Assembly (NCBI RefSeq): GCF_003944765.1
Contig: NZ_RWIU01000003.1
Coordinates: 62,001-126,000, forward strand
Length of the DNA stretch: 64,000 bases
Source: Hymenobacter perfusus
GTDB taxonomy: Bacteria; Bacteroidota; Bacteroidia; Cytophagales; Hymenobacteraceae
Direction: 5' to 3'
The notes under the pieces are model-generated. The model worked only from the letters and a program-made list of their open reading frames with translations, made no database searches and was not told where the DNA came from. Made by a program: the position numbers and the translations under genes. Positions 5,263 through 20,276 of this stretch are shown here, piece after piece (positions within the stretch are counted from its first letter, which is position 1; every line of letters starts with the position of its first letter).

Positions 5263-5362
5263 AAAGGAGAGGGGTTTGGCCCGGCAGCAAGGTAGAACTT
5301 CCTCCGTTTCAACGATAATTCCGCACAGATTTTTCCATTTGCCGATTGTACCTACTGGGCTT

Positions 5363-5767
5363 TTACTTTCTATTGTCGCGCCGCTCCTGGCCTTTTTTAA
5401 GCCGGTATTTGCCTTTCGCTACTTCGGTTTCTGAGTTGACCAGGACGTCAAGACCGGAGACGATTATGAACTGGTCTGTGGCTTCTGGCAGATAGCACAC
5501 TTCCACCTGCTGACCTTTGCTGAACTCGGTGACCTGTGCTTTGTCTGAAGCAGTGAGCGTCAGGAGTTGCCCGGCCCTCGTTTGGAAGCGGACCACCGGG
5601 AAGCGGTAAAACAGGCCAAAGAACTCGAGGTCTACTATTTCTCCCGGAACCCGCTTGCCATACCGGAGAATATCCAGGCGGCTGTGGGAGTTTTTGTTGG
5701 AGCGGTAGAAGGCAAATGCCATTCCTGCAACCACCACTGCGAATAGTACAAAGAAGAAGGTGTTCAT
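5363..5767 (-). CDS. small membrane protein, DUF3592-like
   Basis: The 134-residue protein has one N-terminal membrane helix (residues ~4-20, FFFVLFAVVVAGMAFAFY), then a soluble beta-rich domain: RYGKRVPGEIVDLEF, FYRFPVVRFQT, LLTLTASDKA, FSKGQQVEVCYLP. This pattern (G-x-I/V near the start, F-P-V-V-R-F, G-x-x-V-x-V-x-Y) is that of DUF3592 proteins, of unknown function. It ends in a charged tail (KKGQERRDNRK). It is the most distal of four related small membrane proteins (5363, 5902, 8841 and possibly 14357) interspersed with the AAA+/flotillin genes. Confidence 0.6.
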   Translation of the reverse strand: MNTFFFVLFAVVVAGMAFAFYRSNKNSHSRLDILRYGKRVPGEIVDLEFFGLFYRFPVVRFQTRAGQLLTLTASDKAQVTEFSKGQQVEVCYLPEATDQFIIVSGLDVLVNSETEVAKGKYRLKKGQERRDNRK

Positions 5768-5875
5768 TGGGAAATGCGGGAGCTGGTCGGGGTGGGAGTA
5801 GCGGAAAGTTGCGGAGTGCTGCTACCTGTTACGCCAGCATATAAGCAAGTATAGCAACGACACCTAACAGGCCGG

Positions 5876-5926
5876 CGGCCCGGCCTAGCCAGCGGCCCGG
5901 CCTAGCCAGCGGCCCGGCCTAGCCAG
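5876..5926. repeat. three perfect 17-bp tandem repeats overlapping a gene 3' end
   Basis: CGGCCCGGCCTAGCCAG occurs three times without a mismatch (5876-5892, 5893-5909, 5910-5926). On the minus strand the first copy encodes the last sense codons of the 5902-6288 gene and the second supplies its TAG stop. Because 17 is not a multiple of three, each added copy shifts the frame. Confidence 0.97.
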
Positions 5927-6288
5927 CGGTAGATTGTTATATCAGATTGATTGTAGGAGGGGACCAGAATTTCGGTGGGCGTGGCGGGATTATACTGGAT
6001 TTGCAGCGGCTCGCCCACACGAAACTGGTAGCGGCGCTTGCTGTGGGGGTAGCAAACCGTAACGGTTTCCTGGGTAGCCGTCTGGAAACGCAGGACGGGG
6101 AAGTAGGTGCGGTGGTCGGTAGAAGGGTTGTCTTCGAGGCGGACAATGGTGGCTGTGGCGGAGAGGCTGTGGATGAGCATGTGCTGATGTTTCTGGTGGA
6201 GCCGATTAGCTTTGCGTAGGAACAGCCCACCCAGCAGCAGGCAGATAAGCGCGAACAGCAGATCTTCAGGAATTACCGGGATGGTCAT
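5902..6288 (-). CDS. DUF3592-like membrane protein, C-terminus truncated by tandem repeat
   Basis: The 128-residue protein has an N-terminal membrane helix (~8-24, LLFALICLLLGGLFL) and a DUF3592-like domain with YFPVLRFQT, QETVTVCYP, RVGEPLQIQYNPATPTEI and a final YRWLGRAAG. The stop lies in the second of three 17-bp repeats. With only one repeat copy the frame would continue GLLGVVAILAYMLA and stop, giving a second membrane helix like the one that ends the relative at 8841-9263. The present form is therefore probably a recent truncation. A family A repeat lies upstream (6357-6451), and before that an ATPase 3'-end relic. Function unknown. Confidence 0.6.
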   Translation of the reverse strand: MTIPVIPEDLLFALICLLLGGLFLRKANRLHQKHQHMLIHSLSATATIVRLEDNPSTDHRTYFPVLRFQTATQETVTVCYPHSKRRYQFRVGEPLQIQYNPATPTEILVPSYNQSDITIYRWLGRAAG

Positions 6289-6356
6289 GGCACTTGAGGC
6301 CGTTGGGGTGGAGGTAGAGGCTTACGCTGCGGCATTGGCAAGTGGGTAGATGAGCA

Positions 6357-6451
6357 ACGTCAGCACGCGAGATGCTTCGGCTGCGCTCAGCATGACGGTT
6401 AGCTTGGCAACATAAGCACACAAGATGCTTCGGCAAGCTCAGCATGACGTT
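6357..6451. repeat. dispersed repeat, family A (CATGCTGAGC type), two direct half-units
   Basis: CGTCAGCACGCGAGATGCTTCGG...GCTCAGCATGACGG is followed by a second AAGATGCTTCGGCAAGCTC...AGCATGACGTTC. Both copies face the same way here, unlike the inverted pairs at the other loci. It separates the ATPase tail relic from the DUF3592-like gene. Confidence 0.75.
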
Positions 6452-6464
6452 CTGTGCTGGTGAA

Positions 6465-6573
6465 CTACTCCCGCTTTAACGCCTCCCGAATCCCGCTTAG
6501 GCCGCCAGCAATACTTTCCAGTTTCTCCAGCATCTGCAGGAGCTGGGCGGGGTCGGAGTGGCGCAGGTTGCCG
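6465..6573 (-). pseudogene. relic of the 3' end of an AAA+ (DUF3686) ATPase gene
   Basis: Read on the minus strand, this stretch encodes the last 34 residues and stop of a second ATPase. It runs from NLRHSDPAQLLQMLEKLE to IREALKRE-stop, and 29 of the 34 residues match the C-terminus of the intact ATPase at 9273-14312. Most base changes are synonymous or conservative (Asp/Glu, Asn/Ser, Gly/Ala). Homology stops at about 6573, 22 nt before the end of the serine hydrolase gene. It is best read as the remnant of a duplicated or exchanged ATPase gene. It has no start of its own. Confidence 0.8.
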
Positions 6574-6595
6574 GGGGGCTGAAACCCCTGACTGC

Positions 6596-8482
6596 CTACA
6601 CCGACCACAGGTGCAGGCTCAGCCAGCCGTAGGTAGCCAGGGTGGCGGCCAGCCAGCCCAATGCTCCGTAGGTGAGCAGCAGGTACCAGGCCACCGCGCG
6701 GCTACGGAACTGGCCGAAGCGGCGCAGCGTAAGCAACAGCCCGGCGAGGCTGAACACGGCAAAGGCCAGCGGCCCCACGCCGATGAGCCCCGTGGTCAGG
6801 CTGAGGTGGCCAGCGTCCCAGAAATGGCTGGCCAGGCTGGCAAAGGCCGCCACGGCAACCAGCAGGGCCGTAGTGGCCAGCAATGGCAGCAGACGGGGCA
6901 GCACCTGGGCGCGGGGCAGCCGGCGACGCAGGGCCATGACGAGCCACACCAGGCCCGCTAGGCTGGCCGTGAGCACCAGCAGCAGGCTGAGGGCCAGCAG
7001 GGCCGGCCGCAGCCACCACCAGCCGGAGCTGGCTTCCAGGAAATAGCCCTTGGCCGTAACCAGGGTGCGGCGGCCGTCGTGGTCGTGGGTGAGCACCATG
7101 GAAGCGAACTGCTCCCGGGGGCGGCGGAAGGTGAGCGGGCCGGTGGGCACCAGCGTGTCGGGCTGGCCGAGGAGGGGCAGCAACAGCAGCAACGGCCCCC
7201 GCCGGGTGAGGCGCTGGTCGCCGAGCAGGTAGTCGCGCAGGCCCAGGAGCTGCTGGCGGGGCGCCTCGTTCTGGTAGTGGCCCAGGAAGGGCGCTACGGC
7301 AGCGGCATCGAGGGGTACGAGCCGGGGCCGGGGCGGCGGGGGCACCTGGCGCAACAGAAATTCCAGCACCAGCTTATCGATGCTGGAGGTGCGTTGGTCG
7401 CCGTTGCTGGATAGGGCATAGCCCGCGCCCAGGCCGCGGTGGTAGGCAAACGTGGACGAGAAGCCCCCGATGCTGCCGCCGTGCCCCCGAAACACGGCTT
7501 TGCCGAGCGGGTTCATGGCCATGTTGGCCAGGCCGTAGCCGCCGGGCACGCCGGTGCGGGCCCCGAGGGCCGTGTGGGCCGTTTCCATGGCGTGCAGGGC
7601 GGCGGGCCGGAGCAGGGCCGTACCGTTGGGGCCCCGGAAGTCGTGGAGAAAGAACTGCACCCAGCGGGTCATATCGGCGGCGGAAGCGCTCAGCGAGCCG
7701 GCCGGGCCGGCGTAGATGGGCAGCGGCATGATGCGCTGGTAGCGGCCATCGGCGTAGCGGTAGCCGCGGGCCAGCCTGGGGTTGGCGGCGGGGCGCAGGT
7801 CGGCGGTAGCCTCGGGCATGCCCAGGGGGCGTAGCAGGTGCTGGCTCAGGTACTGCTCGTAGGGCTGGCCGCTGAGCTTTTCGAGCAGGTAGCCGGCCAG
7901 CTGGTAGCCGGGGTTGGCGTACGACATTCGCTCGCCGGGCCGCCAGCGGCAGCGCAGCTCGCGCCGAAACACCTGCACGGCGGCGGCCCCGCGCGGGTCG
8001 GTAGCGGTGGCGTTGTACATGTGGTTGATGCCCATATCGTCGAAGCCGGCGGTGTGTTCCAGCACGTGCACCACGCGCACCGGGTCGGTAGCTTCCCAGG
8101 GGTTGTCGATTAGAATTTCGGGGGCCAGCTTGCGCACTTCGTCGTTGAGGCTGAGCTTGCCTTGCTCCACGAGCTGGAGCAGGCCGGTGGCCACAAACGT
8201 CTTGGTAACGGAGCCCATCCGAAACAGGGTGTGGGCCGTCACGGGCCGGCGGTTTTCCACGTCGGCCAGACCCAATCCTCCTTCAAACAGCACCGAGTCG
8301 TGGATTACCAGGCTGAGCAGCAGGCCCGGAATGTGCTCCTGACGCATGATGCGCTGGATGGAATCGGTGAGCTGAGGGACGGTGGTAATGGGGTGGGGCG
8401 CGGGTTTAGGGTGCTGGGCCCGCAGCACGGTGGCCGATATGACGACTCCGAGTAGGGCAAGCAGCAGAAAGAGTTTCTTCAC
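6596..8482 (-). CDS. serine hydrolase (class C beta-lactamase/penicillin-binding-like) with C-terminal membrane helices
   Basis: The 628-residue protein starts with a signal peptide (MKKLFLLLALLGVVISATVLRAQ). The beta-lactamase-type catalytic domain (~35-390) shows the SxxK motif in FRMGSVTKTF (~90), the YxN motif in MSYANPGYQLAGYLL (~190) and an HGG triad in FRGHGGSIGG (~335). After an intervening beta domain (~400-490), about four membrane helices follow (ALLALSLLLVLTASLAGLVW onward), so the enzyme is anchored with its active site outside. Related proteins act on peptides, D-amino-acid substrates or esters; the substrate here is unknown. It interrupts the ATPase/DUF3592 neighbourhood and may have arrived with the rearrangement that left the relic at 6465. 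Confidence 0.9.
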   Translation of the reverse strand: MKKLFLLLALLGVVISATVLRAQHPKPAPHPITTVPQLTDSIQRIMRQEHIPGLLLSLVIHDSVLFEGGLGLADVENRRPVTAHTLFRMGSVTKTFVATGLLQLVEQGKLSLNDEVRKLAPEILIDNPWEATDPVRVVHVLEHTAGFDDMGINHMYNATATDPRGAAAVQVFRRELRCRWRPGERMSYANPGYQLAGYLLEKLSGQPYEQYLSQHLLRPLGMPEATADLRPAANPRLARGYRYADGRYQRIMPLPIYAGPAGSLSASAADMTRWVQFFLHDFRGPNGTALLRPAALHAMETAHTALGARTGVPGGYGLANMAMNPLGKAVFRGHGGSIGGFSSTFAYHRGLGAGYALSSNGDQRTSSIDKLVLEFLLRQVPPPPRPRLVPLDAAAVAPFLGHYQNEAPRQQLLGLRDYLLGDQRLTRRGPLLLLLPLLGQPDTLVPTGPLTFRRPREQFASMVLTHDHDGRRTLVTAKGYFLEASSGWWWLRPALLALSLLLVLTASLAGLVWLVMALRRRLPRAQVLPRLLPLLATTALLVAVAAFASLASHFWDAGHLSLTTGLIGVGPLAFAVFSLAGLLLTLRRFGQFRSRAVAWYLLLTYGALGWLAATLATYGWLSLHLWSV

Positions 8483-8591
8483 AGGGGGAATAGAGGGAGT
8501 AGATAAAGGGGCGGAAGATAGGGGTTTGCCGGAGAGTATAGCGGTTTGTTAATGAATGTGGGTAAGCGGCCGGGTGGCCGGCACCTGACCG

Positions 8592-8622
8592 GAGGCCGTT
8601 GTTTGCTCTAAGCAACGGCCTC
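8592..8622. other. perfect 10-bp inverted repeat in a 358-bp non-coding gap
   Basis: GAGGCCGTTG (8592-8601) pairs with CAACGGCCTC (8613-8622) around an 11-nt loop. It lies between the serine hydrolase (start 8482) and the DUF3592-like gene (stop 8841). No T run follows on either strand, so termination is uncertain. Nothing else convincing was seen in 8483-8840. Confidence 0.5.
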
Positions 8623-8840
8623 TGGGCCTGCCATAAAGGGTACTGGGTTGGTCTATGGCTCCTTGCAAACCTCCCGGCGGCTACCCCGCCGCAGTTACGG
8701 CTGAGCAGTAGCCCGCGCCACCAGGGCAAACGGCGGCACGGCGCGGGACGCTCGCGGCACAGCCGCTCCGGCATAGTGGTCACTCGGCAATAGCCGAGCG
8801 ACTGCAGGGGGAAAGTAAAGTAAAACCCATGCGTGAAATT

Positions 8841-9263
8841 TTACCCCTGTTTTAGCACCTCCCAAATCATATAAGCCACGTAGGTAATGGCTGCTGCTCC
8901 GAATACCAAAGCATAGTAGGCGCCAGTTGACTTAACATCGGTGGCAAGGGCGCAATTCTCCGGCCGCAAGGGGTCGTAGTAGACGTGTATTTCTCCCCCT
9001 ACTAGGTATAAGAATTCCTCGTTCGAATCTTTCGCCGAGAAATTAGCTTCATGCAAGCGGTGGTGCGGGTCCTGGTAAGTAGCCTTGAAGTGGCTGATGA
9101 AAGCATCCCTCTCTCTGGTAAGCCTGGCCTCAGTAATGACTGCCGAAGTAAGAATGCCATTAGCCCGCAGATATATATTTAGCCGGAGCTGCCGAGCATT
9201 AATCCAGATTAGGTAGATGCCCATTGTGAAGCACACTGTGGCAGTCAGGTATGGGTGTTCCAT
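8841..9263 (-). CDS. DUF3592-like membrane protein with two membrane helices
   Basis: The 140-residue protein has an N-terminal helix (~6-22), a central soluble domain (LRANGILTSAVITEARL, HEANFSAKDSNEEF, GGEIHVYYDPLRPENCAL) and a C-terminal helix (YYALVFGAAAITYVAYMIW). The YYDPLRPE-type turn and flanking helices fit DUF3592. Its ATG begins 10 nt after the ATPase stop, so the two are almost certainly co-transcribed and the product is likely to act at the membrane with the ATPase. It is the best-preserved of the four small relatives and the model for what the truncated 5902 gene has lost. Confidence 0.65.
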   Translation of the reverse strand: MEHPYLTATVCFTMGIYLIWINARQLRLNIYLRANGILTSAVITEARLTRERDAFISHFKATYQDPHHRLHEANFSAKDSNEEFLYLVGGEIHVYYDPLRPENCALATDVKSTGAYYALVFGAAAITYVAYMIWEVLKQG

Positions 9264-9272
9264 CTCGGTAAA

Positions 9273-12200
9273 TTACTCCCGCTTCAGCGCCTCCCGAATC
9301 CCGCTCAGGCCACCAGCTATATTCTCCAGCTTATCGAGCATTTGCAGGAGCTGGCCGGCGCCGGAGTGGCGGAGGTTGTCGAGGTAGGTTTGCTTGATTT
9401 GCTGCCAGCGGGCGGCTTGCTCGGGGGTGAGCCAGCCGAGTAGCTCGCGCAGCTTGAGCAGGTTGGATTCGGTGGCGCTGGTCAGGGTCTGGGCCTCGCT
9501 TTCGTAGTGGGCGGCCAGCAGGTCGGTTATTTCCTGGTCGTTCATGACGGGGCGCACTTTCTCGGCCAGCTTGTTCATGTTGCGGTAGGAGCCCTGGAGC
9601 TTGAACGGCGGCTCGGTGCGGTAGGCGTCGGCTTGGGCGGCGCTGGCAATGTAGGCGGCATTTACCTTGGCCACCACGTCGCGCAGGCGTAGCAACTGGC
9701 CGAGCACGGCCACGTACTCGTTGAGCTCCTCGGGCGAGTGGTTGCCCTCGAAGCTGAGGCCGTCCTGCTGGCCGGTTTCGGCGAGGCGGATGAGGGCGGG
9801 CACGTCCTGGGGGCTTTGGGTGGCGAGGCGGGCTAGGGCCGTGTTGCTGGTGAGGGCGTTTTCGAGGTAGGAGAGGCGGAAGGCGTCTTCGGAGCCGGCC
9901 GTGAGGATGTCGCCGAGGTTGTAGATGTCGGCGCGGTTGGCGAGCATGTCGGGCAACTGGAATACGTCGCCGCTTTCGGTGTAGGGGTTACCGGCCATCA
10001 CCACGGCCACCTTGCGGCCCCGGAAGTCGTAGGTGCGGGCGCGGCCCTGGTAGATGCCCTCAATCTTGCGCTGGGCGTCGCAGAGTGAGATGAACTTCTG
10101 CAGAAACTCGGGGTGGCAATGCTGAATGTCGTCCACGTAAATCATCACGTTGTCGCCCATCTCGAAGGCCAGATTCAGCTTTTCCAGCTCCTGCCGCGCC
10201 CCGGCGTTGGGGGCCTGGGCGGGGTCGACGCTGGTGACGGCGTGCCCGATGGCCGGCCCGTTGATCTTCATGAAGATGAGGCCCAGGCGGTTGGCCACGT
10301 ACTCCATGAGGGTGGTTTTGCCGTAGCCGGGCGGCGAAATCAGCAGCAGCAGCCCCATCAGGTCGGTGCGCTTGCCCTCGCCGGCCGTCCCGATCTGCTT
10401 GGCCAGGTTGGCCCCGATGAGTGGCAGGTACACTTTATCAATCAGCTGATTGCGCACGAACGACGTGAGCACGCGGGGCCGAAAATCTTCCAGGCGCATA
10501 TCCTCAGCGGCGCGGGTCAACAGCTGCTTTTTCGTCTCCTGAAACTGCTCGAACTGGGCCACGGTGGTGCGGTCGTAGTGCAGCAGGCGGCGGCGGAGTT
10601 CGGGGAAGTTGAGGGTGTAGTTGTTGGTTGTTAGTTGTCCGTTGTTAGTGGTAATGATGCGCGGGTGGGTGCCCTGGAAGCCGTCGAGGGTTTCGGTGGT
10701 GGGCGTGTGGACCACGCGGGCGGGGTCGAAAGTTTGGGTGAGCAGGAGGACGGCAGTTTCTGTTGCCTCACCCCCCCGGCCCCCCTCTCCGGGGGGAGAG
10801 GGGGGAGCCTGACGATTGATATCGTTGGATGAGTCTCGTAGTTTGGGTTGAGTTAGGCCAGCACCGCTATTTGCCGACTGGCTCCCCCTCTCCCCCTGGA
10901 GAGGGGGCCGGGGGGTGAGGCAGCTCTGCACCCACTGGCGCACCAGCTGGAACTGGGCCACGGGCTGGTCCTGGAGCTGGGTGATGGACTGTTGGAACAG
11001 GTCGGTGGCGTGGCGCTCCTGCAGCTGCTTCTGGAACTGCTGGTAGAGGTCGGCGGCTTCCTGGGAGATGATGAAGGAGCCGGTGTGGGTCAGCTCGTGG
11101 AACAGGTAGTCGCCGGCTTCCTGCACTTGTTCTGGCGTAAAGATGCCGGTTTGGGCGGCGAAGGTTTCGACGGCGGCTTGCAGCTCGGCTTTGAGCTGGT
11201 CGAACTCCTGGGAGTCGGGGAAGACCTGCAGCAGCACGCCGATACCCTGCAGCTGCCGCTCCCAGTGGGCGCGCTGGTCGGGGTCGGCGAAGCGCAGCCA
11301 GTAAAGGGCGGCAGCGGCGCGGGTATCTGCCGGGTAGCGGAGCAGGTCTGCCGTGCGGGTGAGGCGCACTAGGGCCGTGAGCAGCAGGGCGGCGTCGTGG
11401 TCGTGCACGCCTTTGAGGTAGCCTTCCTGGTAGCGCGCGGCCATGAACTGCTGCACGTAGGTGAGTAGCTCGGCGAGGCTGAGGTGGGTTAGCTCGGGTA
11501 CCGACAGCACAGCGGGTCGGCCGGCCTCGGGGTTGGCGGGGGCGGGGTGGTGGGCGGCCTGCAGGATGCGCCAGGCCAGAAACTCGGCCCGGTACACATC
11601 CTGGTTTTCCGACACCACGGTTTGCTCCCACACGGGCCGGGAGGCCAGCAGGGCGGAGTCGGTTATCTTCTGGAAGAAGTTGGTGCCGGTGAGGTGGTAG
11701 TGCAGGTCGTCGTCGCGCAGCACCACGGTCAGCTCCAGGGGCTGGGTGTTCACGGTGAAGGCGTGGGTGCCGAAGCGCAGGGTCTGGCCGCCGTCGGCGA
11801 ACAGGTCGGCCCGGTCGCGGAGCTGGCGCACGGCGTTTTCGCGCAGGGTTTTCAGGCGGCTCTGCACGTCGTCGGCCTTCACCGAGTCGCCGAGGCTGAG
11901 CAGGTCCTGGGCAGTCTGGCGCACCTTCTCCACCATCACGTCGGCGGCAAAATAGCCGTTGATGTCGGCCACCGATTCCATCCGGCTGACGCGGCTCTGC
12001 ACCGCTTTCAGCAGCCGCTCGGCGCTTTGCAGCAGGGCGGTGGCGCGCTGGTTGCGGGCGGCCACCAGGGCGGTTTTCTTCGATTCGAAGGCTTCTACTA
12101 CCTGCTCGCGGCGGGTGGTGAGCTGCTCGATGAACTGGTCGAAGTCGGGGAACTTGCCTTCCAGCTCTTCCAGCTGCACCATGAGCTTGGTCAGGTACTC

Positions 12201-14312: not shown

Positions 14313-14356
14313 AGGATGGCAAGGCACAGACCCTTGCGGGGAGAAAAAACGGCTAA

Positions 14357-14734
14357 TTAGTTTCGGGAGGACCGTAACCGGGCCTTCAGGATAGCATTAG
14401 CTGGATCTGATTTAGCATAGATGACGGCGGTAGTGTCACCTTTGGCGTGGGTGCGCAAAAAGTTTCTGGACACCCGCGTCCGAAGGGAATGCTCCACGCC
14501 GCCCACAGTATACCGCACTGATACGCGCCGATTTTTGTGCCTTCTGACCCGGGTGATAATGCCCGTGGCGTACCCTGGATTTTTCAGGATAGCCGCGCGC
14601 TGTTCAGCAATATCCGCTCTGATGAAGTAGATAAGGCTAGCAAAAAGAGCAATGGAGAAAGCCAGTCCAAGAGCGAGACCCACGATTTGCCGGCGGGTCA
14701 TTTGGGGTGGAGTGGTGGAATCGGGTGCTTGCAT
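14357..14734 (-). CDS. small membrane protein between flotillin and ATPase genes
   Basis: The 125-residue product (start MQAPDSTTPPQMTRR) has one strong membrane helix (~20-42, IVGLALGLAFSIALFASLIYF) and a basic soluble domain (YATGIITRVRRHKNRRVSVRYTVGG, then VIYAKSDPANAIL). The G-x-I-T-R-V-R / V-x-Y / P-x-N-A pattern recalls a shortened DUF3592 domain; I am moderately sure of that. The open frame extends upstream into the palindromic element at 14758-14925, which is not expected to be translated, so the ATG at 14734 is preferred. The gene lies 45 nt before the ATPase in the same direction. Confidence 0.6.
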   Translation of the reverse strand: MQAPDSTTPPQMTRRQIVGLALGLAFSIALFASLIYFIRADIAEQRAAILKNPGYATGIITRVRRHKNRRVSVRYTVGGVEHSLRTRVSRNFLRTHAKGDTTAVIYAKSDPANAILKARLRSSRN

Positions 14735-14757
14735 GAGCAGGTAGTCAGCGCTAGATA

Positions 14758-14925
14758 CTAGTCGCCTCACCCCAACCCCTTCGCCGCTCAAAGCGCGGAA
14801 TGAAAAAGAGAGGGGCTCTAGTTGTAGAGTTTGGAGGTAGAGAGAAACTAGCACTAGCTTTAAAAGGGTAGAAGCTAGTTCCCCCTCTCCTTTTCGGAGA
14901 GGGGACTAGGGGGTGAGGCGACTAG
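14758..14925. repeat. 168-bp MITE-like element with 16-bp perfect terminal inverted repeats
   Basis: CTAGTCGCCTCACCCC (14758-14773) and GGGGTGAGGCGACTAG (14910-14925) are exact reverse complements. Inside the right end CCCCTCTCC-TTTTC-GGAGAGGGG forms a further hairpin. It fills the gap between the flotillin stop (14929) and the next gene, and carries no ORF of its own. It shares the GCCTCACCCC terminus with the copy inside the ATPase. Confidence 0.8.
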
Positions 14926-14928
14926 AGG

Positions 14929-17085
14929 TTACAGCAGCCGCGCCGGCTTATCCCCGATGCCCAGCGCCGCCGCCGTACCCGCCAGCTGCGTAATCGTAGC
15001 ACGGGTGGCGTCGTCGCCGGCCTGGTTCATCATCTTCAGCAGCAGGGCCGAGACGCTCAGGTTCTTCATGTCCTCCGAGCTGAGGCCGAACTGGTCCACG
15101 AAGCGGCGCAGGTTGGCTTTGAAGTCGCCGCCGTCCTGGGAGAAGAAGGCGTCCTTCACGGTGCCCAGCACTTCAGAATTGTGGACGGTGCGGTCAATCA
15201 TTTTGCCCTTGGTGATAGAGCCGATGATCTGGTCGAAGAACATCGTTTCGCCGCCCACGATGTCGATTTTGGCGGCTTTGAGGGCCTCGCCGATAACGCC
15301 GGCCTGGGAGGCGGCAATGTCCTTCTGAATGTTGATCTGGGCCAGTTCCACCGACTTGTCCTTGTCGAGGCGCAGCTTGAACTCCTCGTGGTCTTTGCCC
15401 ACGCCGTCGAGCTTCTTCATGGCGTCGGCCTTGGCTTCGATGCCCTTGGCTTCCACCGCGAATTTCTGCTCCGATACGGCGGCTTCGGCCAACCCTTTCT
15501 TCTGGTCGGCGTCGGCGCGGAACTGGATGATGTCGGCGTCGGCCTGGCCTTTTTCGCGGTTGACTTTGGCGGCTACCAGCCCCAGCTTCTCGTCGGCCTC
15601 AGCTTGGGCACCGGCCCGCGACTGGATGGCCTGGGCTTCGGCGGCGGCGGTGAGTTGGAGCACGTTGGCTTCGGTTTCGCCTTCCTTCTGGCGGGCGGTG
15701 GCTTTGGCCTGCATCACCTGCGCCTCGGCCAAACCTACGGCCGTGGCCTTGCTGGCTTCGGCTTCGGCGAGGGTGCGAATGGCCTGGCCCTTGAACTCGG
15801 CGGCGGCCTTCTCGGCTTCGGCGTCAATGAGCACCTGCTTGGCGCGGAACTCGGCGGCCTGGCGCTCCATGTCGGCGCCGCCGACCAGGGCCACCGTGGC
15901 GGTTTCGGCCTGCTGCTTGGCGGCCGTCAGGGCCACCAGCTTGTCGCGGTCGGCCAGGGCCTGGGCGCGGGTGTCCTTGATTTTCTCCTCCTCGATTACC
16001 GTGGCTTTTTCCACCGTGATTCGCTCGCGGATGATGGCCTGGATGTTCTTTTTCTCTTCTTCCAGCGCTTTTTCCTTCTCGATCTGGGCCAAGGCGACTA
16101 TTCGCTCCCGCTCGTTTACTTCCAGGGCTTTGGCCTGGGCTACGCGCTCGGTTTCCACGGCGTCGGTGCGCTGTTTGTTGCGCTCGGCCACCAGCACCTG
16201 CCGGTCGCGGTTCTGCTCGGCAATGCCCACTTCTTCCTCGGTGGCAATGCGGGCCTTTTCGCCCTTCAGGCGCTCTTCCTGCTGCACTTTCTCGGTTTCA
16301 GCCAGCTCCCGCGACTTGATGTTGGCAATTTCGCGCTTCTGCTTTTCCTGGTTTTCAATCAGCTGCTTTTCCAGCTGCAGGATGGTTTCCTGCGCCTCTA
16401 CGTCCTGCTTCTTGATGGTTTTCTGCTGCTCGCGCTGGATGGCGTTGGCCTGAATTTTCTGCTCCGAGGTCAGGGAAATAATCTTCTTGATGCCTTCGGC
16501 GTCCAGAATGTTGTCCTGGTTGAGGGCCGTTAGCGGGGTTTGCTCCAGGTAGTCGATGGCGCAGTCGTCGAGCACGTAGCCGTTGAGGTCGGTGCCGATG
16601 ATGGTCAGGATTTGCTGCTTGAACTGCTCGCGGGAGTTATAGAGCTCAATGAAATCGAAGTGCTTGCCCACGGTTTTGAGGGCTTCCGAGAACTTGGCGT
16701 CGAAGAGGCTTTCCAGCGCGGCCGGGTCGGAGGCGCGGTGCGCGCCGATGCTCTGGGCCACGTTCACCACGTCCTGGCTGGTTTTGTTGACGCGCACGAA
16801 GAAGTTCACCTTCACGTCGGCGCGCATGTTGTCTTTGCAGACCAGCCCTTCGGAGCCGGCGCGGGCAATAACGATGGTTTTGAGCTTGATGTCCATCACC
16901 TCCAGCTTATGCAGCACGGGCACCACAAAAATGCCGCTGAACGACACCTGCGTGTCGCCCATGCCGGTGCGCACCAGGGCCTCGCCCTGCACGGCCTTTT
17001 GGTACATGCGCGCCACAATGGCAATAAAGCCCAATAAGAGGACGGCCACGATGACAATCACCGCGAGAGAAAGTTGTTCTAGCAT
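14929..17085 (-). CDS. flotillin family protein (YqiK type, SPFH domain)
   Basis: The 718-residue protein (start MLEQLSLAVIVIVAVLLLGF) has one N-terminal membrane helix (~6-27), an SPFH/band-7 domain (~30-200: GFIAIVARMYQKAVQGEALV, VMDIKLKTIVIAR, DVKVNFFVRVNKT), and a very long charged coiled coil (~210-590) rich in EAE/KAE heptads. A flotillin C-terminal segment follows, with MFFDQIIGSITKGKMIDR. Such proteins oligomerise at the inner membrane and organise microdomains. It sits directly downstream of the YqiJ-like gene, the same pair as E. coli yqiJ-yqiK. The ATG at 17085 is preferred over a start nine codons upstream because it places the helix at the N-terminus. Confidence 0.93.
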   Translation of the reverse strand: MLEQLSLAVIVIVAVLLLGFIAIVARMYQKAVQGEALVRTGMGDTQVSFSGIFVVPVLHKLEVMDIKLKTIVIARAGSEGLVCKDNMRADVKVNFFVRVNKTSQDVVNVAQSIGAHRASDPAALESLFDAKFSEALKTVGKHFDFIELYNSREQFKQQILTIIGTDLNGYVLDDCAIDYLEQTPLTALNQDNILDAEGIKKIISLTSEQKIQANAIQREQQKTIKKQDVEAQETILQLEKQLIENQEKQKREIANIKSRELAETEKVQQEERLKGEKARIATEEEVGIAEQNRDRQVLVAERNKQRTDAVETERVAQAKALEVNERERIVALAQIEKEKALEEEKKNIQAIIRERITVEKATVIEEEKIKDTRAQALADRDKLVALTAAKQQAETATVALVGGADMERQAAEFRAKQVLIDAEAEKAAAEFKGQAIRTLAEAEASKATAVGLAEAQVMQAKATARQKEGETEANVLQLTAAAEAQAIQSRAGAQAEADEKLGLVAAKVNREKGQADADIIQFRADADQKKGLAEAAVSEQKFAVEAKGIEAKADAMKKLDGVGKDHEEFKLRLDKDKSVELAQINIQKDIAASQAGVIGEALKAAKIDIVGGETMFFDQIIGSITKGKMIDRTVHNSEVLGTVKDAFFSQDGGDFKANLRRFVDQFGLSSEDMKNLSVSALLLKMMNQAGDDATRATITQLAGTAAALGIGDKPARLL

Positions 17086-17171
17086 GGAAGTAAGGAGTAG
17101 GAGTAGAGGCAAATCGGGAGAAAGGAAGAGAAAATTATTGGTAGGTAAGCGGTACAGCCGTCAGCTTGGTA

Positions 17172-17280
17172 CACGCTGTAGAGACGCAATATCTTGCGTC
17201 TCGTCGTTGCTGATGTTGTTATCTATATGCGCTGTCGGTCGTTCAACGACGAGACGCAAAATATTGCGTTTCTACACCGT
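17172..17280. repeat. dispersed palindromic repeat, family B
   Basis: GTAGAGACGCAATATCTTGCGTCTCGTCGTTG on the left arm (quoted in part: GTAGAGACGCAA...TTGCGTCTCGTCG) mirrors CGACGAGACGCAA...TTGCGTTTCTAC on the right. The unit interior GTCGTTGCTGAT-TTGTTAT is shared almost exactly with the element at 45251-45363. It fills the gap between the flotillin and YqiJ-like genes. Confidence 0.8.
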
Positions 17281-17301
17281 TCTGTTGATCTGCGAAACGA
17301 T

Positions 17302-17961
17302 TCAGGGCGCGTCATATGGCTCCACAAGGTAGCAGCGGCGGGTGGCATCGTAGTCAATCACCAGCGCCGTATCACCTTTTTTTAGCTCAACGGCGGCGGA
17401 GGCGGCGCGCACGCTCAGTACCAGTGGTGCCCCGGTGGCCTGGGGCACGCTGGCCTGCCCCAACTGCTGCTGGCTGGCGGGCAGCAGCAGGGTGCAGACT
17501 TTGCCCAGCGGCTGCGCGCCGCCGTCGTGGTTGCGCTCCATGGCCGCAAACAGCCGCACAAACGGCAGCGTGAGCACCTTGGCCACCAGCAAGCTGCCCA
17601 GCAGCAGCGGCACCAGCAGCACCGCCCCCAGCAGCCCCGACGTGTTGCCCAAATAGTGGTTCAGCAGAATGCTGCCCACCCACCACGGCAGCGCCACGAA
17701 GCTCACCAGCACCATCAGCGGCACCCGGCCCAGGTTGAAAAAAGCCAGCGCATGGTTCAGCCAGCTCACGCCCATATCGGCCGGATCGGGCGCGGTGTGG
17801 CCGTCGGGACTGAAGTGCGCGGCGTGGTCGGTATCGACGTCAAGGGTCTTGAAGTCGAGTACGCCCAGAAGCACCGTCAGCCAGTACAGCAGCACGAACA
17901 CCAGCAAGCCGGTGGGCAGCAGGTTGGGCGGCGAAACGGCAGCATGTAGAAGTTCGGTCAT
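17302..17961 (-). CDS. YqiJ/NfeD-like membrane protein with C-terminal OB fold
   Basis: The 219-residue protein has about three membrane segments (~15-36 LLPTGLLVFVLLYWLTVLLGV, ~80-104 LMVLVSFVALPWWVGSILL, ~109-129 LLGAVLLVPLLLGSLLVAKV) and a C-terminal beta-rich OB-like domain (GKVCTLLLPASQQQLG ... KKGDTALVIDYDATRRCYLVEPYD). This architecture is that of YqiJ/NfeD-type flotillin partners. Its place next to the flotillin gene supports a joint membrane complex. Only a family B repeat separates the two genes, with no terminator-like T run. Confidence 0.85.
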   Translation of the reverse strand: MTELLHAAVSPPNLLPTGLLVFVLLYWLTVLLGVLDFKTLDVDTDHAAHFSPDGHTAPDPADMGVSWLNHALAFFNLGRVPLMVLVSFVALPWWVGSILLNHYLGNTSGLLGAVLLVPLLLGSLLVAKVLTLPFVRLFAAMERNHDGGAQPLGKVCTLLLPASQQQLGQASVPQATGAPLVLSVRAASAAVELKKGDTALVIDYDATRRCYLVEPYDAP

Positions 17962-18014
17962 GGCAGAATAGAAAGTGGGGTAGAAAGCCAGTGCCGAAGA
18001 TGTTGACTGGGAAT

Positions 18015-18719
18015 TTACCCCAGCCCCAGCTTGGCCTTCAGGGCCTGCAAATCGGCGGAAGCTTGGCCGCTGCCGTCCTTGCCCAGCGCCTTGTCAATTT
18101 CCTGATCGATGGACTTGCTTTCCTGGGCAATCTGCCCGTACGATTCAGCCAGGGCTTCCTCAGTCGCCACCTTGTCCTTCATGCGCTCCAGCAGCGCCAC
18201 CGTGCCCGACGAATCCAGTTGGGCCAGCTGCTGGTTGATGGTTTTGGTGGCCGTGCTCACCGTCACGCGGGCTTTCAGGGTTTTTAGCTCGTTGTCCCAC
18301 TGCGAAATGGTGCTTTTGAGCTGCTGCACGTTCTGGTCGAGCTGCTGGGCCGAGGCCTCAAACTTCTGCTGTTCCTGGGTGGCGCGGGTGGCCTGGGCTT
18401 CGTGCTGGGTTTTCTTGAGCAGGGCTTCCGTGGCGAGGCGGTCGGCTTCGGGAGCCTCCATCTCCTGGCGGTGCGCCTTCTGGAGCAGCAGCACGGCCTT
18501 GTTTTCGTAGTCAAGGGCGCGGCCACGCTCCGTTTCGGCCTCATTGCGGCTGCGGATGGCCAGGGCCTTCACCTCGGCCAGCGCGTGCAGGGCCTTGTCT
18601 AGGTCCAGGCGCAGGTCGCGCAGCCCCTGCTCGATCATTTTGATCGGGTCCTCGAACTGGTTGACTGCCGAATGCGCTTCGGCCTGCCCGATTTTGAAGA
18701 TGCGGTTGAAGAGGTTCAT
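18015..18719 (-). CDS. pspA: PspA/IM30 family protein
   Basis: The 234-residue protein is predicted to be almost entirely coiled coil. The N-terminal amphipathic helix (MNLFNRIFKIGQAEAHSAVN) and the QFEDPIKMIEQGLRDLRLDL segment are classic PspA/Vipp1 features for binding stressed membranes. A long heptad region follows (LKKTQHEAQATRATQEQQKF) and then a short C-terminal helix. The family forms ESCRT-III-like assemblies that limit membrane leakage. It lies 53 nt upstream of the YqiJ-like gene in the same direction, so a shared transcript is likely. Confidence 0.93.
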   Translation of the reverse strand: MNLFNRIFKIGQAEAHSAVNQFEDPIKMIEQGLRDLRLDLDKALHALAEVKALAIRSRNEAETERGRALDYENKAVLLLQKAHRQEMEAPEADRLATEALLKKTQHEAQATRATQEQQKFEASAQQLDQNVQQLKSTISQWDNELKTLKARVTVSTATKTINQQLAQLDSSGTVALLERMKDKVATEEALAESYGQIAQESKSIDQEIDKALGKDGSGQASADLQALKAKLGLG

Positions 18720-18756
18720 GGCTGTTGGGAGTTTGGGGTGTTGAGGAAGTTTGGAT

Positions 18757-18860
18757 CGTCATGCTGAGCCTGTCGAAGCATCTCTACCGCTTCGTCTGAA
18801 TGGTATTGCAACGAAGCGGTAGAGATGCTTCGACTTCGCTCCGCTGCGCTCAGCATGACG
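18757..18860. repeat. dispersed palindromic repeat, family A (CATGCTGAGC type)
   Basis: CGTCATGCTGAGCC...GAAGCATCTCTACCGCTTCG is mirrored by CGAAGCGGTAGAGATGCTTCG...GCTCAGCATGACG. It ends 1 nt before the stop codon (18862) of the upstream small gene and 38 nt before pspA begins, so it lies inside the probable operon. Confidence 0.85.
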
Positions 18861-18861
18861 G

Positions 18862-19275
18862 TCAGATGTCCTCGGAACCGGATTTCGAAAACGCAATCAG
18901 CTCGTCGCTGAACTCGCTGAGTAGCAAGCCCAGGGAATTGAAAACGGCTTCCAGCTCCTGCCGGTCGAGGTGCTCCAGCTGAAGCGTGTCGCGGAAGATG
19001 ACCTTGCGGCCTGTTTCGTCAAGCACGAAAGCGCCGTGAATGATGTCACGGTTCTTCTGGAGCAGGCGCTGGTAGATGTCGCAGTTAGGGGCCAGCAGAT
19101 CCAGCAGGTACTGCTCCAGAATCAGCAGCGGCTCGCCGCAGCCCAGCACCAAGTGCTCGATGCCTAGCTCCGGCTTGCTCACTACCAGCAGGTTGTTAGC
19201 CTCATCCTGGTGGCAGATGTCGAAGTCAAGCTCCAGCAGATAGTTCTGGATTTTATAGAAGTAGGAGTTGGCCAT
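18862..19275 (-). CDS. small acidic protein, YbjN / Tir-chaperone-like
   Basis: The 137-residue, acidic, soluble protein opens MANSYFYKIQNYLLELDFDI and continues NLLVVSKPELGIEHLVLGCG, then a helix (LLILEQYLLDLL) and the VLDETGRKVIFRDTLQLEHLD strand-turn. The alpha-beta pattern resembles YbjN and type III secretion chaperone-like proteins; assignment is by pattern only. Such genes recur beside pspA and DUF3686 ATPases, where they may modulate PspA. It is the first gene of the minus-strand cluster. The spacer upstream (19276-19490) must hold its promoter, but no clean TAnnTTTG was found on that strand. Confidence 0.55.
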   Translation of the reverse strand: MANSYFYKIQNYLLELDFDICHQDEANNLLVVSKPELGIEHLVLGCGEPLLILEQYLLDLLAPNCDIYQRLLQKNRDIIHGAFVLDETGRKVIFRDTLQLEHLDRQELEAVFNSLGLLLSEFSDELIAFSKSGSEDI

Positions 19276-19419
19276 AGAGTAAGTCGAACTTGGGGAGAAG
19301 GGAAGTTGGCCAGAAGGTAAGTACTATCGGGAAGCCGTCCGTAGCGCGGTGCGGAAAGGCTTTGGATCTAATGGCTCAAAAAAATAGCGGAGCAGAAAAC
19401 TGCCATCGGGAATATGTGC

Positions 19420-19427
19420 TAGCTTTA
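19420..19427 (+). promoter_or_regulatory. possible -7 element (TAGCTTTA) of the XRE regulator gene
   Basis: TAGCTTTA matches TAnnTTTG at seven of eight positions and lies about 64 nt before the regulator ATG, just ahead of the two operator-like dyads. Transcription would then begin close to the first dyad. No -33 TTG with good spacing was seen. Confidence 0.35.
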
Positions 19428-19440
19428 CGATGCAAGTGTA

Positions 19441-19471
19441 CTCAAAGTTTGAGATACGCTCAAGTTTTGAG
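19441..19471. promoter_or_regulatory. pair of operator-like dyads CTCAA-N3-TTGAG
   Basis: CTCAAAGTTTGAG (19441-19453) and CTCAAGTTTTGAG (19459-19471) share CTCAA-N3-TTGAG, with centres 18 bp apart. They lie 20-50 nt before the XRE regulator ATG and in the divergent spacer to the stress cluster. This is a typical layout for autoregulation by a dimeric XRE protein, with possible control of the divergent genes. Binding is inferred. Confidence 0.6.
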
Positions 19472-19490
19472 CAGAAAATATTTTTGCCGC

Positions 19491-20276
19491 ATGTCGTACG
19501 TAGGAAAGAACATTCGCAAAATTAGAACCGTCAAGAAGCTGAGCCAGGCCGCTTTTGCCGAGTTGTTTGGCCTGGCCCGGCCCAGCGTAGGGGCATACGA
19601 AGAAGGACGGTCTGAGCCAAAAATGGAGACGCTGATCCAGATTGCTCATTATTTTGGCTTATCGGTAGACTTGCTACTTACGAAAGAGCTGACCGTAAAC
19701 GAGCTTTACCACTTCGACATTTTCCGGCAGGAGCCCGCCGCCGAAGTACCCGCCAAGCCGGCCGCTGCCGAGGCTGACCGCCTGGCCCAACTCACGCCCT
19801 TTGTGCCCGCCGACCGCCTGCTCGAGTACATTGTGCAGCACCACAGCACCGGGTTCATCGACGCGCTGCCGCCGCTCACGTTTCCGCACCAGCTGGGGCC
19901 GGCCACCCGGGCCTTCGAGATTGTAGGGGCCGAAATGCAGCACCAGCAGCAAGGCCTGCGTCACCAGGATGTAGTGCTATGCTGCCGCGTAGATAAGGCC
20001 ACGGCCACCCTGCGGCCGGGCCGCATCTATGCCTTCGTCACGCAAAGCAGCCTGCTGGTGCGCCGCCTCTCCGAGCGCCTGCCTGCTAACGTGCTCAAGC
20101 TCCGCGCCGACAACCCCGACTACGGCACCCAGGAATTCGCCCTGGAGCAAGCCTTGGAAATATGGGAAGTGAAGGCCGTGTTCACCACCCACCTGCGCCC
20201 GCCGTCGCGCATTGAGGACCGGGTGACGCGGCTGGAACGGCAGGTAGAGGAGTTGCTGGCGCGGCTGGACGGGTAA
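19491..20276 (+). CDS. XRE-family regulator with S24/LexA-like C-terminal domain lacking the protease dyad
   Basis: The product is 261 residues from MSYVGKNIRKIRTVKKLSQ. The HTH spans ~1-60 (SQAAFAELFGLARPSVGAYEEGRSEPKMETL). After a linker, residues ~110-235 resemble the S24/LexA sensor fold (FEIVGAEMQHQ; HQDVVLCCRV; GRIYAFVTQSSLLVRRLSE). Where LexA has G-x-SM, this protein has GAEM, and the lysine position reads VRRL, so self-cleavage is unlikely. The C-terminus is a short coiled coil (RIEDRVTRLERQVEELLARL). An in-frame start at 19290 exists, but the operator dyads and promoter lie between it and 19491. It probably controls the divergent PspA/flotillin/ATPase cluster. Confidence 0.85.
   Translation: MSYVGKNIRKIRTVKKLSQAAFAELFGLARPSVGAYEEGRSEPKMETLIQIAHYFGLSVDLLLTKELTVNELYHFDIFRQEPAAEVPAKPAAAEADRLAQLTPFVPADRLLEYIVQHHSTGFIDALPPLTFPHQLGPATRAFEIVGAEMQHQQQGLRHQDVVLCCRVDKATATLRPGRIYAFVTQSSLLVRRLSERLPANVLKLRADNPDYGTQEFALEQALEIWEVKAVFTTHLRPPSRIEDRVTRLERQVEELLARLDG

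What the first reader, a model, noticed from the sequence alone, without database searches (positions are those of the whole stretch)
5363..20276. Extended PspA / YqiJ / flotillin / DUF3686-ATPase module with small membrane partners and an S24-like regulator
Seen: YbjN/Tir-like, PspA, YqiJ-like, flotillin, a small membrane protein, ATPase, a DUF3592-like protein, a serine hydrolase and two further DUF3592-like genes are all on the minus strand, with a divergent XRE regulator. Established: PspA, flotillin, YqiJ and DUF3686 ATPases are linked in several phyla and tied to envelope stress. Inference: the extra DUF3592-like proteins and the membrane-anchored serine hydrolase are unreported partners that may connect the ATPase to membrane or cell-wall damage.
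Basis: partly seen in the sequence, partly recalled or inferred. Interest (0 to 1): 0.65.

Follow-up and report, generated by a model that had tools for sequence, protein, structure and literature searches.

The report
Defence-gene hotspot behind a stress ATPase
The extra small membrane genes beside this known membrane-stress gene cluster look less like fixed partners than like swappable cargo at a recombination hotspot at the end of the cluster's ATPase gene, a spot that in sister species often carries anti-phage defence genes and leaves stray copies of the ATPase gene's tail behind.

Summary
The genes are real and placed as described. The core (CesT/Tir, PspA, YqiJ-like, flotillin-like, DUF3686 ATPase) is a published operon type (Ravi 2024). 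One addition holds: the divergent XRE-S24 regulator accompanies CesT in all 20 CesT-bearing genomes of a 60-genome survey. The 'extended partners' do not hold as conserved partners. The stretch from the ATPase stop to a conserved flank gene (window 5263-9272) is a variable slot. In 26 Hymenobacter loci it spans 0.4-8 kb with different content nearly every time: DUF3592 genes, or mostly AT-rich genes including CBASS, type IIG restriction, a DRT reverse transcriptase, NACHT, SIR2/NB-ARC and Fic proteins. Copies of the ATPase's own last ~100-120 nt recur there (21 of 65 ATPase loci; 2 of 490 control genes); the window has one just after the serine hydrolase. DUF3592 genes next to ATPases at least 90% identical are 27% identical (median). 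The last 24 ATPase codons show about three times the third-position divergence of the codons before them. Likely, [tail + gene] cassettes enter at the ATPase 3' end and displace older ones. No integrase was seen among 33 slot proteins. What DUF3592 does (partner, immunity, defence) is open.

The parts
19494..20276 (+). XRE-S24 regulator, divergent from the module; probable catalytic Ser/Lys positions of the S24 part hold E/D and R
   Evidence: Pfam HTH_3 5e-12, Peptidase_S24 1e-7; orthologue beside CesT in 20 of 20 CesT genomes; residues in 19 aligned sequences
18862..19275 (-). CesT/Tir-like chaperone
   Evidence: PF22550 1.8e-55
18015..18719 (-). PspA
   Evidence: PF04012 8e-41
17302..17961 (-). 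YqiJ/YuaF-like membrane protein
   Evidence: several TM segments, position; upstream of the ATPase in 25 of 25 family loci; no Pfam, NCBIfam or PDB match
14929..17085 (-). flotillin-like (N-terminal TM, long coiled coil)
   Evidence: layout, position and Ravi 2024 description; no sequence-profile match
14357..14734 (-). DUF3592 protein a, between flotillin and ATPase; 52-54% identical to genes at the same place in three g5 loci
   Evidence: PF12158 30.2 bits
9273..14312 (-). DUF3686 + DUF7902 + AAA ATPase
9347..9389 (-). zone just before the exchangeable ATPase tail (nt -75 to -117 from gene end): conserved third positions, and where most orphan tails begin
9273..9346 (-). exchangeable ATPase 3' tail (last ~24 codons)
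   Evidence: third-position divergence 0.42-0.44 against 0.12-0.18 upstream
8841..9263 (-). DUF3592 protein b, slot 1, 9 nt after the ATPase stop
   Evidence: model pLDDT 92
6596..8482 (-). serine hydrolase (PF00144, AmpH/class C-like) with C-terminal TM segments
6465..6576 (-). orphan copy of the ATPase 3' end, reads NLRHSDPAQLLQMLEKLESIAGGLSGIREALKRE-stop, about 20 nt after the hydrolase stop
   Evidence: 84-85% nt to the ATPase tail over 111-118 nt
5902..6288 (-). DUF3592 protein c, after the orphan tail; 91% to a gene in locus L099
5775..5816 (-). possible decayed second orphan tail
   Evidence: weak 42-nt alignment, no statistics
5363..5767 (-). DUF3592 protein d
4726..5262 (-). PNPOx-like flavin protein, conserved outer flank of the slot
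   Evidence: PF01243 4e-12; same strand in 26 of 26 loci that have it

Best explanation
Two things lie side by side. (1) A known envelope-stress module (CesT/Tir, PspA, YqiJ-like, flotillin-like, DUF3686 AAA ATPase) beside a divergent, probably non-proteolytic XRE-S24 regulator. (2) From the ATPase stop to the PNPOx-like gene (window 5263-9272), a recombination hotspot of Hymenobacter. SHOWN: content between the two fixed flanks differs almost genome by genome; it is on average AT-rich against its flanks, often anti-phage-defence-like, and interspersed with copies of the ATPase 3' end; in two compared cases such a copy is an old ATPase end still joined to the gene that follows the ATPase in a relative; and the last ~24 codons of the ATPase are far more diverged than the codons before them. 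INFERRED: incoming DNA enters by recombination near nt -75 to -117 of the ATPase gene, brings its own ATPase tail plus a gene, so the ATPase stays whole, and pushes the old tail and gene downstream. Homologous recombination through the ATPase end is the default mechanism; a recombinase acting in trans is not excluded. The window's DUF3592 b-d genes are such cassettes. The serine hydrolase is a GC-rich resident neighbour (its orthologues lie downstream of the ATPase in genus g5 too) now caught between them. Genes next to the ATPase may be read with it, so the slot may give its cargo the expression of a membrane-stress operon (inferred, untested).
For: Fixed flanks, variable content: 26 loci, 435-8009 nt. 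Tail copies within 5 kb: ATPase 21 of 65, other genes 2 of 310 and 0 of 180 (Fisher 2e-19), also in single-contig genomes G250 and G334. Displacement: L118's slot-1 gene has a 78% relative behind an orphan tail in L087 (ATPases 97.3% identical), and homology runs unbroken through tail, stop and gene; the same for L130 and L088 (87%). Gene turnover: 107 pairs with ATPase 90% or more, DUF3592 median 27%, 100 of 107 under 40%; the flank PNPOx median 87% in the 55 such pairs that have it. Tail divergence: (in 77 of 79 close pairs the tail is more diverged than the adjacent window); 4 of 5 control genes show no such step. Foreign composition: slot genes mean GC 0.465 against PNPOx 0.637 and control genes 0.611. 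Defence content: PADLOC at 1e-20 hits at least 10 of 33 slot proteins, in 7 of 26 loci, against 2 of 107 proteins beyond PNPOx (Fisher 7e-6).
Against: Orphan start points spread over -96 to -119 nt, with others at -78, -143 and -199 to -271, so no single crossover point is proven. Orphan tails are usually not closest to their own ATPase tail nor to the predicted partner's, so the path of each event cannot be read off. The tail is not the only diverged part of the gene: 13-codon windows about 478-510 codons from the end are as diverged, and the gene-wide median is 0.23. A first test that took the last 37 codons as one block saw no difference, because it mixed conserved and diverged parts. Serine hydrolase genes, one of five controls, also show a raised 3' end (0.459 against 0.325, n=8). 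45 loci of 66 show no orphan tail. Much cargo is not defence-like by PADLOC: of 20 slot proteins scanned singly, 10 had no hit at 1e-20, the NACHT, AlbA_2, NA37 and HD-CE proteins among them. The two PADLOC hits among controls are GlgB and mad3. PADLOC and Pfam matches are homology, not function. Relatedness between loci is not corrected for in the Fisher tests.
Confidence: 0.8

Rival explanations
1. One reading: the DUF3592 proteins and the serine hydrolase are functional partners of the ATPase in membrane or cell-wall damage. For DUF3592 a weaker form is possible: one variable TM-OB-like-TM protein, translated right after the ATPase, is its interchangeable partner.
For: 50 of 50 DUF3592 genes found downstream are on the ATPase strand; 16 of 22 slot-1 genes start 2-14 nt after the ATPase stop; 4 of the window genome's 5 DUF3592 matches are at this locus; DUF3592 a lies between flotillin and ATPase in three of five g5 loci as well; serine hydrolase linked in 6 of 7 ATPase genomes that have it.
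Against: Not found near the ATPase in 20 loci outside the family nor in 12 of 13 loci of other family genera (own profile, some of the 20 loci on short contigs); slot 1 holds DUF3592 in 22 of 66 loci and other genes in many others; non-orthologous replacement; hydrolase absent from 19 of 26 ATPase genomes and set off by a 358-nt gap upstream.
Confidence: 0.2
2. The array arose by tandem duplication of [ATPase tail + DUF3592] inside one genome, followed by divergence, without import.
For: Units are tandem, co-oriented and homologous; one pair in L094 is 79% identical.
Against: Tail copies are 74-97% alike at DNA level while slot-1 DUF3592 proteins are about 27% alike between genomes with near-identical ATPases; L087's slot-1 gene is 76% to L030's but 30% to L118's slot-1 gene, the relative of the one it displaced; an unrelated Fic gene sits between two tails in L086 and L097; AT-rich cargo.
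Confidence: 0.08
3. Site-specific capture: a recombinase acting in trans uses a core near nt -75 to -117 of the ATPase gene as attachment site, so these are integron-like or rAID-like cassettes.
For: Most orphan tails begin in a narrow zone, many directly after the cargo gene's stop; the zone (window of codons 26-38) is among the most conserved third-position stretches (rank 34 of 1643 windows) beside one of the most diverged (ranks 11-39).
Against: No integrase, transposase or relaxase family among the 33 slot proteins at 1e-6 (proteins under 120 aa not scanned); start points not identical; a fixed short homology handed down by descent would give the same pattern.
Confidence: 0.3

Closest known systems
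CesT/Tir-PspA operons with band-7/flotillin, YqiJ/YuaF and a beta-propeller AAA+ ATPase (Ravi et al. 2024, PMC11237479; outline and passages seen)
   Same: Same gene set as the window core
   Different: The words XRE, S24, LexA, DUF3592 and beta-lactamase do not occur in its main text as held; no variable slot in the passages seen
PspA-band-7 neighbourhoods in Bacteroidota, with HTH regulators in some PspA operons (Popp et al. 2022, PMC9239133; passages seen)
   Same: PspA beside band-7 proteins; an HTH regulator in the operon is mentioned in general
   Different: XRE, S24 and DUF3686 do not occur in its main text as held
rAID arrays of orphan immunity genes in Bacteroidales (PMC12247911; passages seen)
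   Same: Co-oriented short, diverse, AT-richer genes with conserved sequence between them, in the same phylum
   Different: rAID has its own tyrosine recombinase; here the repeated sequence is the 3' end of a resident ATPase gene, no recombinase was seen, and larger phage-defence-like genes share the slot
Rhs/CDI orphan modules (PMC3967940 seen in the search listing only; detail recalled)
   Same: New 3' end plus following gene displaces the old 3' end, left as an orphan downstream
   Different: Here the exchanged protein end keeps its amino-acid sequence and is no toxin; the variable part is the following gene
Defence-island hotspots between core genes, and SCC-type elements at the 3' end of a core gene (recalled)
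   Same: Fixed flanks, variable defence cargo
   Different: Mostly one to three genes, gene-tail scars of ~100-120 nt, no integrase seen

Membership tests
CesT/Tir-PspA-band-7-AAA+ operon (Ravi 2024 first group) | CesT/Tir and PspA dyad | tested here: met
   PF22550 1.8e-55, PF04012 8e-41, adjacent
[quoted passage not shown]
   TM and coiled coil present; no band-7 or flotillin profile match
CesT/Tir-PspA-band-7-AAA+ operon (Ravi 2024 first group) | large AAA+ ATPase with N-terminal propeller/coiled coil | tested here: met
   DUF3686 2e-194 N-terminal, AAA C-terminal; the propeller itself not tested
CesT/Tir-PspA-band-7-AAA+ operon (Ravi 2024 first group) | 3TM YqiJ/YuaF protein | tested here: inconclusive
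   hydrophobic segments at about 7-40, 71-101 and 103-141; no profile match
DUF3592 (PF12158) | match over Pfam cut-off 25.3 bits | tested here: inconclusive
   a and c over (30.2, 25.5), b and d under (19.8, 18.7); b-d align with other members found here
Anti-phage defence hotspot | fixed core-gene flanks with variable, defence-enriched, foreign-looking cargo | tested here: met
Anti-phage defence hotspot | cargo protects against phage | not testable with these tools
   needs experiments
rAID system | tyrosine recombinase at the head of the array | tested here: not met
   none among 33 slot proteins of 120 aa or more in 26 loci; the ATPase stands at the head
Integron | integron integrase | tested here: not met
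   no integrase family among the slot proteins; the rest of the genomes was not searched
Integron | attC sites | not tested
   folded attC-like sites were not looked for
S24 autoprotease regulator (LexA/CI type) | catalytic Ser-Lys pair | tested here: inconclusive
   positions judged equivalent by eye hold E/D and R in 19 of 19 sequences; motif recalled, no LexA was aligned

The most novel reading that the evidence does not exclude
The 3' end of a membrane-stress ATPase gene serves as the capture site of a cassette system unlike integrons and rAID: each cassette is one or a few genes plus a spare copy of the ATPase's own last ~100 nt, so every insertion re-makes an intact ATPase and leaves the old end as a scar. 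The array serves as a bank of defence or immunity genes (variable membrane-anchored OB-like DUF3592 proteins and phage-defence systems) wired to a PspA/flotillin envelope-stress operon.
Probability: 0.3. Interest if true: 0.85.

Novelty: new variant of a known kind. Interest (0 to 1): 0.62.

Why it matters
It corrects a tempting guilt-by-association reading: neighbours of the ATPase here are largely rotating cargo. It also gives a hotspot with two fixed flanks, which can be mined for new defence genes in an under-studied phylum, and a natural record (orphan tails joined to former neighbours) of how small gene cassettes are captured without a visible integrase. That a phage-shock-type operon hosts phage-defence-like cargo at its end raises the directly testable question whether the stress operon drives that cargo.

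Tried and rejected
Synonymous constraint on the last 37 codons as one block: no signal; split by position it showed a sharp step. Orphan tail closest to its own or its partner's ATPase tail: not in general. Promoter and terminator scans, including a Bacteroidota-type pattern (recalled): no excess over shuffles. Fold of DUF3592 b: TM-beta-TM with an OB-like core; best VIA-align Z 6.1 (e.g. 53-58 residues, rmsd 1.8-2.5, to SSB proteins), best Foldseek E in PDB 0.033: a common arrangement, no function read from it. The viral library gives giant-virus and a few phage proteins, several named DUF3592, not followed up. NCBIfam for DUF3592 a and b: no match. Structure of the flotillin N-terminus: unusable. 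Literature: one paper in the library holds 'DUF3592' (listing only); none joins PspA, flotillin and DUF3686; 'PspA' with 'defense island' and 'hotspot' gave two papers, seen in the listing only. PMC10948618 (a Pseudomonas cluster with a CesT-like BacA and a PspA-like BacB; passages seen) was not used further. These searches cover only the held open-access library.

Dropped before counts: loci without a complete ATPase 3' end (7 of the 60 regions, chosen because they had a tail match) are left out of the 66-locus and 65-locus counts; six genomes with a match were not fetched (G291, G336, G314, lying near a contig end, and G257, G242, G335). Three of the 66 ATPases (L086, L088, L100) have an interrupted frame and were left out of the alignment of 35. 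Slot proteins under 120 aa and DUF3592 genes were left out of the PADLOC comparison on both sides. Of the 33 slot proteins, 20 were scanned singly, all 33 (25 of 48 families shown), so 'at least 10' is a lower bound.


Full report
OBSERVATION. The window lies in a 5.1-Mb genome (G000). A genome of its genus, G325, has a contig of the same length as that of Hymenobacter sp. YC55, and loci of the sister genus g5 (G020, G030, G040) match contigs named Hymenobacter jeollabukensis, Solirubrum puertoriconensis and Hymenobacter edaphi by length. On the minus strand run CesT/Tir (18862-19275), PspA (18015-18719), a YqiJ-like protein (17302-17961), a flotillin-like protein (14929-17085), a DUF3592 protein (14357-14734), the DUF3686 ATPase (9273-14312), DUF3592 b (8841-9263), a beta-lactamase-fold serine hydrolase (6596-8482), DUF3592 c (5902-6288) and d (5363-5767); the XRE-S24 gene (19494-20276) is divergent. 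Flotillin and YqiJ could not be confirmed by any profile search here; I keep the names because topology and order fit the operon described by Ravi et al. (PMC11237479, outline and passages seen).

CORE AND REGULATOR. In 60 genomes of the family, 26 have the ATPase. In the 25 fetched relatives, flotillin and YqiJ genes lie upstream of it in 25 of 25, PspA in 20, CesT in 18 and the XRE-S24 orthologue in 18. Over the 60 genomes CesT occurs in 20 and the XRE-S24 orthologue (44% identity or more, split from paralogues of about 36% or less) in 21: all 20 CesT genomes plus G004. The seven ATPase genomes without CesT lack it. At its locus G045 keeps XRE, CesT and PspA without YqiJ, flotillin and ATPase; G004, which has no CesT and no ATPase, keeps the XRE gene among the flanking genes of its g5 relatives. 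So the regulator goes with the CesT-PspA half. Its S24 part has E/D and R where I judge, from recall, that LexA-type proteases have Ser and Lys (19 of 19 aligned sequences), which suggests a sensor or dimer domain and not a self-cleaving one (inference). In 194 genomes of the order, some of the same family, the ATPase is in 34; of 20 loci fetched from other families, 17 show flotillin and YqiJ (the other three lie on contigs under 15 kb), 5 PspA, and 1 CesT and XRE.

THE EXTRAS ARE NOT CONSERVED PARTNERS. With a profile built from the genus's DUF3592 genes, a DUF3592 gene is near the ATPase in 0 of those 20 loci, in 1 of 13 family loci outside genera g1 and g5, and in 7 of 12 within them; several of the 20 loci are short, and the profile may miss distant members. 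With Pfam's own model there are 66 DUF3592 matches (E up to 0.1) in 31 of 60 family genomes; 43 are in 15 ATPase genomes, 20 of these within 10 kb of the ATPase, and 23 are in 16 genomes without it. The serine hydrolase has orthologues (60% or more) in 9 of 60 genomes: 7 with ATPase, 2 without, one of these broken (Fisher 0.03); 6 of the 7 start 0.8-4.8 kb downstream of the ATPase on its strand but with different genes between; the other three places show no core gene within the 19 kb fetched. Hymenobacter YC55 (L060) has it 8.7 kb downstream.

A TAIL COPY IN THE WINDOW. The last ~112 nt of the ATPase gene recur at 6465-6576 with 84-85% identity, in frame to the stop, about 20 nt after the hydrolase stop. 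A profile of the ATPase's last 60 residues, searched in 120 genomes of the genus, matched 73; 22 genomes have, besides the end of a long frame, at least one further match, on the same contig and 0.4-5.4 kb downstream in 20 of them (those of G254 and G299 are on other contigs); G005, G256, G286, G306, G312 and G326 have only tails not attached to a long frame, that of G326 close to a contig end. I fetched 60 regions. Of 66 loci with a complete ATPase 3' end (53 of these, 7 earlier ones of the genus with the window, 5 of g5), 21 have orphan tails by tblastn. In a like-for-like test with each gene's last 150 nt against its own next 5 kb, the ATPase scores 21 of 65, other downstream genes 2 of 310, genes of 26 neighbourhoods 0 of 180. 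Of 30 orphans aligned, most begin at -96 to -119 nt from the ATPase end, many right after the stop of the gene before them.

A HOTSPOT. A PNPOx-like gene follows on the same strand in 26 loci and gives a fixed outer flank. Between ATPase and PNPOx lie 435 to 8009 nt with nearly unique content: DUF3592 alone; DUF3592-tail-DUF3592; DUF3592-tail-Fic-tail (L086, L097); or other genes close behind the ATPase stop. Pfam and PADLOC name an oligonucleotide cyclase with a 4TM effector (CBASS; 2e-73, 2e-51), a DRT UG13a reverse transcriptase (2e-215), a type IIG restriction-methylase (7e-183), a PDC-M38 ATPase/TOPRIM pair (2e-101, 2e-66), two SoFic proteins (4e-45), a SIR2-NB-ARC protein (ThsA-like, 2e-23), a PDC-S31 protein (6e-50), two AlbA_2 proteins, a HATPase with a Shedu-like end, and HD-CE and NACHT proteins. 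With one cut-off (1e-20) at least 10 of 33 slot proteins, in 7 of 26 loci, hit PADLOC, against 2 of 107 beyond PNPOx in the same loci, GlgB and mad3 (Fisher 7e-6). AlbA_2, NA37, HD-CE, NACHT and the weak PIN protein did not pass that cut-off. Slot genes of 120 aa or more, DUF3592 included, average 46.5% GC, PNPOx 63.7%, control genes 61.1%; DUF3592 genes 51.3%; the window's hydrolase has 69.2%. No integrase, transposase or relaxase family is among the 33 (Pfam, 1e-6).

DISPLACEMENT AND EXCHANGE. Among 17 loci with a slot-1 DUF3592 and an alignable ATPase, 107 pairs have ATPases 90% or more identical; the DUF3592 proteins are then 27% identical in the median (100 of 107 under 40%, the highest 85%), while PNPOx is 87% in 55 such pairs. 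A relative of the same allele can be slot 1 in one genome and stand behind an orphan tail in another: L118 and L087 (78%, ATPases 97.3%), L130 and L088 (87%); the alignment runs unbroken through tail, stop codon and gene. The window's c gene is 91% identical to one in L099. So these orphan tails read as former ATPase ends with their former neighbours. Which genome's tail an orphan resembles most does not follow simply. Third positions of 35 ATPases diverge 0.42-0.44 in the last 24 codons and 0.12-0.18 in the 276 before, with a step at nt -75; in 79 close pairs the tail is more diverged than an adjacent window in 77. Windows about 478-510 codons from the end are as diverged, and the gene-wide median of 13-codon windows is 0.23. 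PNPOx, an SDR gene and two others show no 3' step; hydrolase genes do (0.459 against 0.325, n=8).

READING. The simplest account is repeated entry of [ATPase end + gene] DNA through recombination in a short zone before the tail. Homologous recombination is sufficient and my default; a recombinase in trans would explain the narrow zone. What DUF3592 does is not shown. It is a predicted TM - OB-like - TM protein, on the ATPase strand in 50 of 50 cases, and in 16 of 22 slot-1 cases 2-14 nt behind the ATPase stop. My odds, inference only: variable partner of the ATPase 0.2; immunity protein against a neighbour's membrane toxin (as in rAID) or phage-defence protein 0.4; neither 0.4.

KNOWN OR NEW. 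The core is published. rAID (PMC12247911, passages seen), Rhs orphans (recalled; PMC3967940 in a listing) and defence hotspots (recalled) are relatives in kind. I found no report of an ATPase-tail cassette array or of this hotspot in the searches, which cover only an open-access library. I file it as a new variant of a known kind.

Noticed in passing
window 10764-10922: A 158-nt palindromic repeat sits in frame inside the ATPase gene and codes a low-complexity linker (LTPRPPLQGERG...PPSPPGEGGRGGE); similar 30-45-nt repeats near this place of other ATPases recur between genes in many loci, and ATPase open frames vary in length (about 1636-1772 aa).
   Followed up: partly
L134 3087-4142 minus; L141 4575-5264 minus (offsets from ATPase end): Two other genes, an SDR-like gene and a 229-aa protein, also have a copy of their last 106-114 nt downstream, so the 3'-end duplication may not be limited to the ATPase.
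   Followed up: no
L105 (G312): Urocanase is followed directly by the last ~70 ATPase codons and a gene 52% identical to the window's DUF3592 b: at this locus the module from regulator to ATPase body is missing.
   Followed up: partly
L109 (G256), L104 (G286), L106 (G306), L108 (G005): Genomes whose only match to the ATPase-end profile is an orphan tail; L109 and L104 keep DUF3592 genes beside them: probable scars of module loss.
   Followed up: partly
L027, L033-L035, L041-L043 between flotillin and ATPase; L053 (G045): In genus g6 a 170-230-aa coiled-coil membrane protein stands between flotillin and ATPase; G045, whose locus lacks YqiJ, flotillin and ATPase, kept it.
   Followed up: no
L036 14418-14720, L045 14296-14694; L030-L032, L036 between PspA and YqiJ: Other small accessory genes: a protein that looks like a bacterial PH domain (recalled) before flotillin, and ~70-100-aa hydrophobic proteins, in tandem in L036.
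   Followed up: no
L028, L029, L040 between flotillin and ATPase: A DUF559-like (Vsr-type, recalled) nuclease gene in the gap where the window has DUF3592 a.
   Followed up: no
L093, L094, L102: Orphan ATPase tails starting at about -143 nt lie some 30-40 nt behind a PNPOx gene end, that is, beyond the outer flank of the slot.
   Followed up: no
DUF3592 model of window 8841-9263: Many giant-virus membrane proteins match the DUF3592 fold (31 matches at E 0.001 or better in BFVD), and some phage proteins more weakly.
   Followed up: no
L086, L088, L100: In three loci of the hotspot the ATPase frame is interrupted and only the last 543-564 codons are open, two of them with orphan tails and DUF3592 genes still downstream.
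   Followed up: no
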